Shown piece by piece: positions 30,835 to 63,391 of a stretch of 64,000 nucleotides of DNA. The DNA is taken from positions 496,001 to 560,000 of the forward strand of contig NZ_BJTG01000001.1 in the NCBI RefSeq assembly GCF_013340205.1, given 5' to 3'. The position numbers and the translations under genes are program-made. Source of the DNA: Anaeromyxobacter diazotrophicus. Lineage in GTDB: Bacteria > Myxococcota > Myxococcia > Myxococcales > Anaeromyxobacteraceae. How positions within the stretch are numbered: position 1 is the first letter of the stretch; the number at the start of each line of letters is the position of its first letter. The notes under the pieces are model-generated. The model worked only from the letters and a program-made list of their open reading frames with translations, searched no databases and had not been told where the DNA came from.

Positions 30835-30849
30835 GCCGGCGGAAGGCGA

Positions 30850-30876
30850 CCCCCGCCGCCGGAGCGGCGGCGGGGG
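30850..30876. terminator. GC hairpin between convergent genes
   Basis: CCCCCGCCGCC and GGCGGCGGGGG form a perfect 11-bp stem with the loop GGAGC. There is no T-run on either side. Its place between the tpx stop and the cytochrome gene end suggests a bidirectional terminator or transcript-end stabiliser. Confidence 0.6.
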
Positions 30877-30888
30877 TGCCCGCCTGCT

Positions 30889-32244
30889 TCACCTCCGGGG
30901 CGCGGTGAGGGCCTTCACCCGCTCCGGCGGGTAGCCCAGCGCCTCGAAGTCCAGGGCGCCGCCGGCGCGGTGGCACGCGTCGCACGCGAGCGCCTGGGCC
31001 TTCGGCGCCACCTGGTGGTTGAGCGAGAAGAGCATCGACTCCTCCACGCCCTTCACGGCGCCGCTGAACTCCTGCTTCGTGTCCTCGGCGCCCTTCCGCG
31101 CCGCGGCGAGGGGATCGCCCTTCACCGCGTACAGCCCGGCCTTGATGAAGACCGGCTTCCCGGTGCGCGCGTCCCCGACCACGGTGTAGGTGGCGCGCTT
31201 CCAGGGGTAGATCTTCGCCGCCGGGTCCGCGCGATCGCCGAGCGGCTCGGGCGGGACCGTCATCTTCCGGTTCCACCAGCGGTACTCCGGCCGCACCCCG
31301 CTCGCCAGCTGGTTCGCCGGGCCGTAGAGCCCGGTCTTCTCGTTCAGGACGGGCTTCGTCCAGTCGCGGCGCACCACGGTCGGGAACTTCGGATCGCGCG
31401 CGATGGCGGGGATGTGGCACGTCTGGCAGGCGAGCCGCGCCGCGTGCCGCGTCAGGGTGGCGGCGTCGGCGCCGCGGTGGACGTCGGGGGCGTGACAGCC
31501 CGAGCAGGCGACCGCCACCTCCGGCGCCTCGTTCGCCTTGATGTCGGCGCCGCCGGCGGTGCGGTGGTTCTTCGTGGGGTGGCAGTCCACGCAGCCGATC
31601 CCCTTCGCGAGGTGCACGTCCACCGCGGGGGAGGTGGGCGCGACGCCGTGCTTCGCGTTGGGACCGCCGCCGGCGCCCAGGTGACAGCGCTGGCACATGT
31701 CGTCGGTGGGCCGCCGCACGGCGCGGGCCGCCGCGAGCACGTCCACCCCTTCGGCCGGACGGATCTCGAACTTGTCGCCCTGCTTCACGACCGTCCGGCG
31801 GTAGCCGGGCGCGTGGCAGAGGAGGCAGTCCACGTTCTCCTCGTCCGCCTGGGAGAGCTTCTCGACCGGGTTCGGCTTGGCGCCGAGCCCCGGGTGACAC
31901 TGAACGCAGCCACCTGGCTGCGCCGGCTTCGTGGCGTCGCTGGGCTGGAGGACCCCGGCCCAGTTATGCCCGACCACCGTGGCCGGCGGGGCTCAGTAGC
32001 TCACCATCATGCCGGCCGACTTCGCCTGCTGCGCGTTGGCGAGGAACGGCGCCGGCGCCTGCTGCTGGTAGTGCAGGCTGGTGACGAAGTCCTTCACCTG
32101 CTTCTCGTGGCAGCGCGCGCAGGTCCGCGTTCCCTCGTACGCCGCGATCGCGGCGTGCTTCGCCTCGGCGTCCGCCGCTCCTCGGGCGCTGCCCGCCGCC
32201 GCGACGAGCGTGAGCGCTCCCAACACTCGGGTCCAGCTCGGCAT
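30889..32244 (-). CDS. Octaheme c-type cytochrome with in-frame TGA (selenoprotein candidate)
   Basis: A 451-codon frame with one internal TGA at codon 84 (31993-31995). Before it are a signal peptide and haem motif 1 (CARCH, residues 42-46). After it, in the same frame, come seven more CxxCH motifs: CVQCH, CLLCH, CQRCH, CVDCH, CSGCH, CQTCH and CDACH. The eight haems suggest the octaheme tetrathionate-reductase-like group of periplasmic reductases. Around the TGA the protein reads MMVSY-stop-APPATVVGHNW; codon use and similarity to the rest continue, so this is a single gene. Readings are selenocysteine insertion, a nonsense mutation (TGG to TGA) or a sequencing error. A small hairpin follows the TGA. 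A strong GAGGAGG precedes the ATG. From memory, a related family is annotated as (seleno)protein ExtKL. Confidence 0.75.
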
Positions 32245-62371: not shown

Positions 62372-63391
62372 ATGGCCGGTCCGGATCGCGTCGCCCTGAA
62401 GCACGGAGCGGGGGGGCGCGCCATGCGCGCGCTCATCGAGGACGTCTTCCTGCCGCTGGGGGGCCCGGTGGACGGCGTCGGGCTGTCCGCCATGGACGAC
62501 GGCGCCGCGCTGCGCGTCGGCGACCAGTGGCTCGTCGTCACCACCGACTCGCACGTGGTGCAGCCCATCTTCTTCCCGGGCGGCGACATCGGCCGCATCT
62601 CCGTCTGCGGCACCGTCAACGACCTCGCCATGATGGGCGCCACCGAGCCGCTCGGCCTCACCTGCGCGGTGGTGATCGAGGAGGGCTTCCCGCGCGAGGC
62701 GCTGGAGCGGATCCGCGACTCGATGAAGCGCGCCTGCGAGGAGGCCGGCGTCACCATCGTCACCGGCGACACCAAGGTGATGGGCAAGGGCGAGGTGGAC
62801 GGGATCGTCCTCAACACGGCCGGGTTCGCGCTCGCGCGGCGGATCGTGCGGGACGACGGGCTCCGGCCCGGCGACCGGATCATCGTCACCGGCACGGTCG
62901 GCGACCACGGCATGGCGGTCATGACGCGGCGCCGCGACCTCCAGATCGAGGGCGACCTGCGCTCCGACGTGGCGCCGCTGAACGGCCTCGTCCGGGCGGC
63001 GCTCCAGGCGGGCGGTGAGGCGGTGGTGGCCATGAAGGACCCCACCCGCGGCGGGCTCGCCTCGGTGCTGCACGAGTTCGCGCAGAAGGCGAAGGTCGGG
63101 GTGGTCCTCGACGGCCCGTCGGTGCCGGTCACCCACGAGGTGCAGGCCGCCGCCGAGATGCTCGGCATCGACCCGCTGGTGGTGGCGAACGAGGGCAAGG
63201 CGGTGCTGGGCGTCCGGCCGGAGGCGGTCGACCGCGTGCTGGCGGCGCTCCGGGCGCACCCGCAGGGGCGGCGGGCGGCGGTGGTGGGCACCGCCGTCGC
63301 CGAGCGCCCCGGCAACGTCATCCTCGACACCGGCCTCGGCCGGCGGCTCCTCGCCGAGAGCGACGGCGAGCCGCTGCCGCGCATCTGCTAG
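62372..63391 (+). CDS. hypE: Carbamoyl dehydratase HypE
   Basis: A 339-residue HypE that dehydrates the HypF-derived thiocarbamate on its own C-terminal cysteine. The C-terminus is LPRIC, the required PRxC ending. The ATP-binding start HGAGGRAMRALIEDVF, GDTKVMGKG and MKDPTRGGLASVLHEFA are the PurM/SelD-like motifs. It begins directly behind hypD. Confidence 0.97.
   Translation: MAGPDRVALKHGAGGRAMRALIEDVFLPLGGPVDGVGLSAMDDGAALRVGDQWLVVTTDSHVVQPIFFPGGDIGRISVCGTVNDLAMMGATEPLGLTCAVVIEEGFPREALERIRDSMKRACEEAGVTIVTGDTKVMGKGEVDGIVLNTAGFALARRIVRDDGLRPGDRIIVTGTVGDHGMAVMTRRRDLQIEGDLRSDVAPLNGLVRAALQAGGEAVVAMKDPTRGGLASVLHEFAQKAKVGVVLDGPSVPVTHEVQAAAEMLGIDPLVVANEGKAVLGVRPEAVDRVLAALRAHPQGRRAAVVGTAVAERPGNVILDTGLGRRLLAESDGEPLPRIC

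What the first reader, a model, noticed from the sequence alone, without database searches (positions are those of the whole stretch)
30889..32244. Octaheme cytochrome read through an in-frame TGA: likely selenoprotein
Direct: one frame holds eight CxxCH motifs, with a single TGA (31993-31995) between motif 1 and the other seven. The frame is open on both sides for the full protein, no shift is needed, and the seven downstream haem motifs are all intact, which argues against an old pseudogene. Downstream, CCGGCC-ACGGT-GGTCGG can form a hairpin whose loop contains GGT, as in bacterial SECIS elements, but the loop begins only 12 bases after the TGA (17 in E. coli fdhF). Known family: octaheme tetrathionate-reductase-type enzymes have, to my memory, an active-site cysteine between haems 1 and 2, so Sec there would be catalytic. 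I also recall an annotated (seleno)protein family called ExtKL. Inference: Sec is the best of three explanations.
Basis: partly seen in the sequence, partly recalled or inferred. Interest (0 to 1): 0.85.

Follow-up and report, generated by a model that had tools for sequence, protein, structure and literature searches.

The report
Selenocysteine octaheme cytochrome, tetrathionate-reductase type
A bacterial electron-transfer enzyme with eight haems has an in-frame UGA that very probably encodes the rare amino acid selenocysteine, at the place where nearly all relatives carry a conserved cysteine; selenocysteine forms of this enzyme were already catalogued, and this is a distant cousin that seems to have gained it separately.

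Summary
A 451-codon frame (30889-32244, minus strand) holds eight CxxCH motifs and one TGA (31993-31995, residue 84) between haem motifs 1 and 2. The protein is a divergent relative of octaheme tetrathionate reductase (OTR; TIGR04315, 199.8 bits against a cut-off of 375; model versus 1SP3 Z 30.3). Selenocysteine is strongly supported. In the nearest relatives (57-58% identity) a TGT cysteine codon aligns ungapped with the TGA. Among 150 OTR-family sequences this column is 133 Cys, 15 TGA and 2 Ser; it corresponds to Cys64 of Shewanella OTR. The genome has selA, selB, selD (itself with an in-frame TGA), a UCA tRNA-Sec, and three further TGA-containing formate-dehydrogenase-like frames. In 13 Desulfobacterota relatives that I read, TGA sits in the same column, followed in most by a strong GGU-loop hairpin. 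The window's own SECIS is plausible but not above chance. The family's Sec form is already listed, without a site, as GenBank-annotated (PMC13188914, 2026), so this is a new member of a known kind. What this work adds is the site, a separate gain in an Anaeromyxobacteraceae genome, and co-loss of the residue with the haem-2 lysine in two relatives. Substrate and peptide remain unshown.

The parts
30889..32244 (-). Octaheme OTR-like c-type cytochrome gene, 451 codons plus TGA stop, with an N-terminal signal-peptide-like stretch (residues 1 to about 23, by eye)
31993..31995 (-). In-frame TGA, residue 84, predicted selenocysteine; TGT (Cys) in the nearest relatives L181 and L182
31953..31989 (-). 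Candidate SECIS hairpin; apical loop GGUCGGGCAUA starts 17 nt after the UGA, GGU at 31973-31975
   Evidence: weak on its own (energy no better than synonymous controls; GGU-loop criterion met by 80 of 2000 controls)
32107..32121 (-). Haem 1 motif CARCH (residues 42-46)
   Evidence: sequence
31894..31908 (-). Haem 2 (expected catalytic haem) motif CVQCH (residues 113-117)
   Evidence: alignment to 1SP3; haem II is called catalytic in OTR in PMC4484225
31651..31653 (-). Lys198 codon, aligned with the near-invariant lysine of the GGGGxxVKHG motif of OTR (haem-2 ligand in OTR, from memory)
30846..30882 (.). Strong GC hairpin between the convergent tpx and cytochrome genes, possibly a shared terminator
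   Evidence: by eye

Best explanation
The gene encodes an exported octaheme c-type cytochrome of the OTR superfamily. During translation SelB and tRNA-Sec decode UGA-84 as selenocysteine, probably guided by a hairpin starting a few bases downstream. The selenol takes the place of OTR Cys64, near the lysine-ligated catalytic haem 2, and would act as the redox-active or nucleophilic partner of that haem in reducing a small sulfur, nitrogen or selenium substrate; the other haems feed it electrons. Shown by computation: the read-through frame, the Cys/Sec column, the Sec machinery, the family and the fold. Inferred: actual Sec insertion, export, proximity to haem 2, and reductase chemistry. The substrate is unknown. 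The confidence given is for selenocysteine; for the catalytic role at haem 2 I would say about 0.65.
For: Nearest relatives L181 (58%) and L182 (57%) read SAGMLVSYCPPPNTVAGHNW or a near copy against the window's SAGMMVSYUAPPATVVGHNW, with TGT at the TGA. Across 150 sequences the column is 133 Cys, 15 TGA, 2 Ser; the two Ser forms (L184, L062) also lack the haem-2 lysine, as expected of two residues of one active site. Genome G000 has selB (337 bits), selA (523 bits joined), selD with its own TGA (395 bits), tRNA-Sec UCA, and three FdhA-like frames each with one TGA. In a sample of 395 genomes of the phylum of L096, 31 of 78 listed above-cut-off TIGR04315 matches contain one TGA; in all 13 of those read, and in L096, TGA is at the same column, and eleven carry CUGGUGC-AGGU-GCACCAG with its loop 24 nt after it. 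The fold matches 1SP3; UGA-84 aligns with its Cys64. OTR reduces nitrite, hydroxylamine and tetrathionate, with haem II as the catalytic haem (PMC4484225).
Against: The window's own SECIS is not statistically distinguished. Only one genome shows TGA in this subclade; its sister sequences are Cys or Ser. A single-base sequencing or assembly error is not excluded without reads. Model confidence is low (pLDDT about 51-61) around residues 71-90, so the distance of residue 84 to haem 2 was not measured. No conserved operon points to a substrate.
Confidence: 0.9

Rival explanations
1. Sequencing or assembly error, or a polymorphic nonsense mutation, in a cysteine codon of an ordinary Cys-type octaheme enzyme.
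For: Only one genome carries TGA in this subclade; TGT to TGA or TGC to TGA is one base; haem proteins are rich in such codons (28 possible single-base TGA sites).
Against: About 1 in 28 of the possible TGA errors, or 1 in 122 of all nonsense errors, would land on this one codon; the organism decodes UGA elsewhere; the same column is recurrently TGA in another phylum.
Confidence: 0.06
2. A pseudogene in early decay.
For: A premature stop after 83 codons; the substrate and the need for the enzyme are unknown.
Against: All eight haem motifs, the conserved further histidines and Lys198 are intact, with nonsynonymous below synonymous change on both sides of the TGA.
Confidence: 0.02
3. UGA is read by near-cognate suppression (for example as Trp), or the downstream part is a separate gene started at an internal codon.
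For: A GTG-started 362-codon frame exists downstream of the TGA.
Against: No relative has Trp at this column; a separate downstream product would lack the signal peptide and haem 1, both of which are kept upstream; the gene ends with TGA as an ordinary stop.
Confidence: 0.02

Closest known systems
Octaheme tetrathionate reductase of Shewanella oneidensis (OTR, PDB 1SP3)
   Same: Eight CxxCH, same fold (Z 30.3, 370 residues aligned), conserved lysine, and a Cys (64) where the window has UGA
   Different: About 31% identity; Cys, not Sec; the window has extra residues between the site and haem 2
Sec-containing TIGR04315 cytochromes (GenBank-annotated, WP_331457571.1, listed in PMC13188914)
   Same: Same superfamily, one Sec; Desulfobacterota members read here have TGA at the same column
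   Different: The window protein is below the TIGR04315 cut-off, in another subclade and phylum, and probably gained TGA separately; the site of WP_331457571.1 itself could not be checked
ExtKL (NF040886), Geobacter Sec-containing multihaem cytochrome
   Same: A c-type cytochrome predicted to hold Sec
   Different: Pentaheme, inside the extHIJKLMNOPQS cluster (PMC5877670); no NF040886 hit here
Relatives L181, L182, L184, L061, L062 (one subclade)
   Same: Closest sequences, 45-58% identity
   Different: Cys (L181, L182, L061) or Ser (L184, L062) at the site

Membership tests
TIGR04315 (tetrathionate reductase family octaheme c-type cytochrome) | Score at or above the curated cut-off of 375 bits | tested here: not met
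   199.8 bits over nearly the full model; L181 207.8 and L061 193.5. A relative, not a member by NCBI's threshold.
OTR superfamily (homology and fold of 1SP3) | Full-length homology, eight CxxCH, same fold | tested here: met
OTR superfamily (homology and fold of 1SP3) | Lysine of the GGGG..K motif (haem-2 ligand in OTR, from memory) | tested here: met
   Lys198; K in 147 of 150
OTR superfamily (homology and fold of 1SP3) | Tetrathionate, nitrite or hydroxylamine reductase activity | not testable with these tools
   no assay
Bacterial selenoprotein | In-frame UGA aligned with a conserved Cys | tested here: met
Bacterial selenoprotein | selA, selB, selC, selD in the genome | tested here: met
Bacterial selenoprotein | SECIS hairpin: G in first two loop positions, 16-37 nt from UGA, loop 3-9 nt (PMC13188914) | tested here: inconclusive
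   A GGU loop at 17 nt but 11 nt long; a model-conforming 6-nt loop at 23 nt has energy no better than controls
Bacterial selenoprotein | Sec found in the protein | not testable with these tools
   needs mass spectrometry or 75Se
ExtKL (NF040886) | Match to the NCBIfam model | tested here: not met
   Not among hits at E up to 0.01; octaheme, and no ext-like neighbours

The most novel reading that the evidence does not exclude
Cys64 of OTR-type octaheme enzymes has been replaced by selenocysteine several separate times, which marks it as the chemically active partner of the lysine-ligated haem; the window protein is an independent, previously unlisted Sec subfamily, perhaps with a selenium or sulfur oxyanion as substrate.
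Probability: 0.5. Interest if true: 0.6.

Novelty: new member of a known kind. Interest (0 to 1): 0.5.

Why it matters
Selenocysteine generally replaces cysteines that do redox chemistry, so repeated Cys-to-Sec exchange at one column is evolutionary evidence that OTR Cys64 is catalytic rather than structural. The enzyme's natural substrate is unsettled (it reduces nitrite, hydroxylamine and tetrathionate), and a Sec/Cys comparison makes the role of that residue directly testable. It also suggests that annotation pipelines may truncate this gene, because it lies below the TIGR04315 threshold.

Tried and rejected
Single-protein scan of genome contigs found nothing; the alignment scan worked. Hairpin energy of the window against shuffles or synonymous controls gave no signal. 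The '1 TGA' reported for L018 is only its terminal stop. An early alignment put His at the site in L062; reading it and L061 by hand and realigning gave Ser in L062 and an ungapped Cys in L061. No conserved gene neighbourhood was found around the window gene, L061, L062 or the stretches around L181, L182 and L184: the gene stands alone. Foldseek and VIA gave no close match other than 1SP3. No open paper found describes the Sec site of this family; Mowat 2004 itself is not in the library, so the lysine ligation and the place of Cys64 beside haem 2 rest on memory.

Full report
Observation. The minus strand of 30889-32244 encodes 451 residues with eight CxxCH motifs and a single internal TGA at 31993-31995, codon 84, between motifs 1 and 2. 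The frame begins with ATG behind GGAGGGG and ends with TGA. GC at third positions is 0.94 before and 0.96 after the internal TGA, and in alignments with the nearest relatives nonsynonymous change is below synonymous change on both sides.

Family. NCBIfam places it nearest TIGR04315, the tetrathionate-reductase-family octaheme cytochromes, at 199.8 bits, well below the curated 375. A profile of 48 relatives finds 1SP3, Shewanella OTR, at 547 bits, with Cys64 of 1SP3 in the column of the window's UGA (the number 64 was counted from the printed alignment). The AlphaFold2 model (mean pLDDT 87.9) matches 1SP3 with Z 30.3 over 370 residues. The loop holding residue 84 is modelled poorly (pLDDT 51-61 for residues 71-90), so I make no distance claim.

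The UGA column. Twenty-nine homologues from the same order all have Cys. In 80 loci fetched from a collection of 84,980 species, nearly all have Cys; L096, a Desulfobacterales assembly, has TGA there. A search of 395 genomes of its phylum with TIGR04315 listed 78 matches over the cut-off, 31 of them with one TGA in the frame. In the 13 of those I read in full, TGA is at this column; eleven carry CUGGUGC-AGGU-GCACCAG, an AGGU loop 24 nt after the UGA, and two (L157, L158) a different hairpin, GCAACGAGGCUCGUUGC. The place of the TGA in the other 17 unread matches was not checked. Over all 150 sequences aligned at the end the column is 133 Cys, 15 TGA (the window, L096 and the 13) and 2 Ser.

The nearest relatives. 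A search of the order that holds the Geobacter assembly L061 gave L181 (58%) and L182 (57%): SAGMLVSYCPPPNTVAGHNW and a near copy, against SAGMMVSYUAPPATVVGHNW in the window, with TGT at the site. L061 (48-52%) also has Cys, eleven residues before the same Trp. L184 and L062 have Ser there, and both also lack the lysine at window position 198 (Arg and Ser in the alignment); L061 keeps Cys but has Tyr at 198. In OTR that lysine ligates haem 2 (from memory of Mowat et al. 2004, which papers in the library cite but which is not held). The window keeps both residues. Co-loss of the two in two relatives is what an active-site pair would show, but two cases are few.

Decoding machinery. The genome (4.83 Mb, 17 contigs, 100% complete) has selB, selA, a tRNA-Sec with UCA anticodon and selD, which itself has an in-frame TGA near its start. 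Three FdhA-like frames have one TGA each; two of them read as Sec-type active sites with a possible hairpin about 18 nt downstream. UGA is therefore read as Sec in this organism, as far as genes can say.

SECIS. The loop is longer than the 3-9 nt of the model in PMC13188914. Its energy is ordinary for such GC-rich sequence (z -0.24; 61 of 100 synonymous controls do as well in a model-conforming search), and 80 of 2000 controls have a GGU loop at such a distance, by a criterion I set after seeing the fold. This part is compatible, not evidence.

Evolution. In two trees the window groups with L061, L062 and, where included, L181, L182 and L184, away from the Desulfobacterota Sec forms. The Sec label needs 4 to 5 changes, and none of 200 bootstrap trees allows one. 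Changes may be gains or losses; a separate gain in the window's lineage is the simplest reading, since its sisters have Cys.

Setting. The gene stands alone: malate dehydrogenase and thiol peroxidase genes run towards it, and an FmdB-type zinc-ribbon gene runs away from it. No neighbour recurs around its relatives, so the substrate cannot be inferred from context. The same genome has a second, Cys-type octaheme relative, L040.

Prior knowledge. The review PMC13188914 (May 2026) lists 'Tetrathionate reductase family octaheme c-type cytochrome, TIGR04315, one Sec, WP_331457571.1, GenBank annotated' without a motif. Sec in this family was thus already annotated. I found no paper that names the site, the hairpin or the repeated gain, within an open-licence library that lacks many journals.

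Verdict. A selenoprotein at 0.9 confidence; a new member of a known kind, interesting because it points to OTR Cys64 as a catalytic residue and because it seems to have arisen separately.

Noticed in passing
G000:C6:335436, C4:77682, C10:25095 (L186, L187): Three formate-dehydrogenase-alpha-like frames in the window's genome each hold one TGA; two read as typical Sec sites with a possible hairpin about 18 nt downstream.
   Followed up: partly
L047 1501-2427: selD of this genome has an in-frame TGA near its start (a Sec-type SelD).
   Followed up: partly
L157, L158 (Desulfobacterota): Sec forms whose downstream hairpin (GCAACGAGGCUCGUUGC) differs from the CUGGUGC-AGGU-GCACCAG of the other eleven, perhaps a separate gain.
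   Followed up: no
L096 (Desulfobacterales assembly, G195): Has TGA at the Sec column but no tRNA-Sec over the cut-off was found in its held assembly; possibly incomplete.
   Followed up: partly
L184, L062: Both lost the Cys (Ser instead) and the haem-2 lysine together; L061 kept Cys but has Tyr for the lysine.
   Followed up: partly
L062 2791-6132: A Verrucomicrobia frame of 1114 codons in which the octaheme domain is followed by a further multihaem stretch.
   Followed up: no
L141, L142 (IMG/VR contigs): Octaheme relatives on two contigs labelled viral; may be host sequence.
   Followed up: no
G241:C15:17216-18403: A TIGR04315 relative with one in-frame TAG.
   Followed up: no
window 62474-63220: Weak selD-profile match (73.6 bits), probably another member of the AIR-synthase superfamily.
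   Followed up: no
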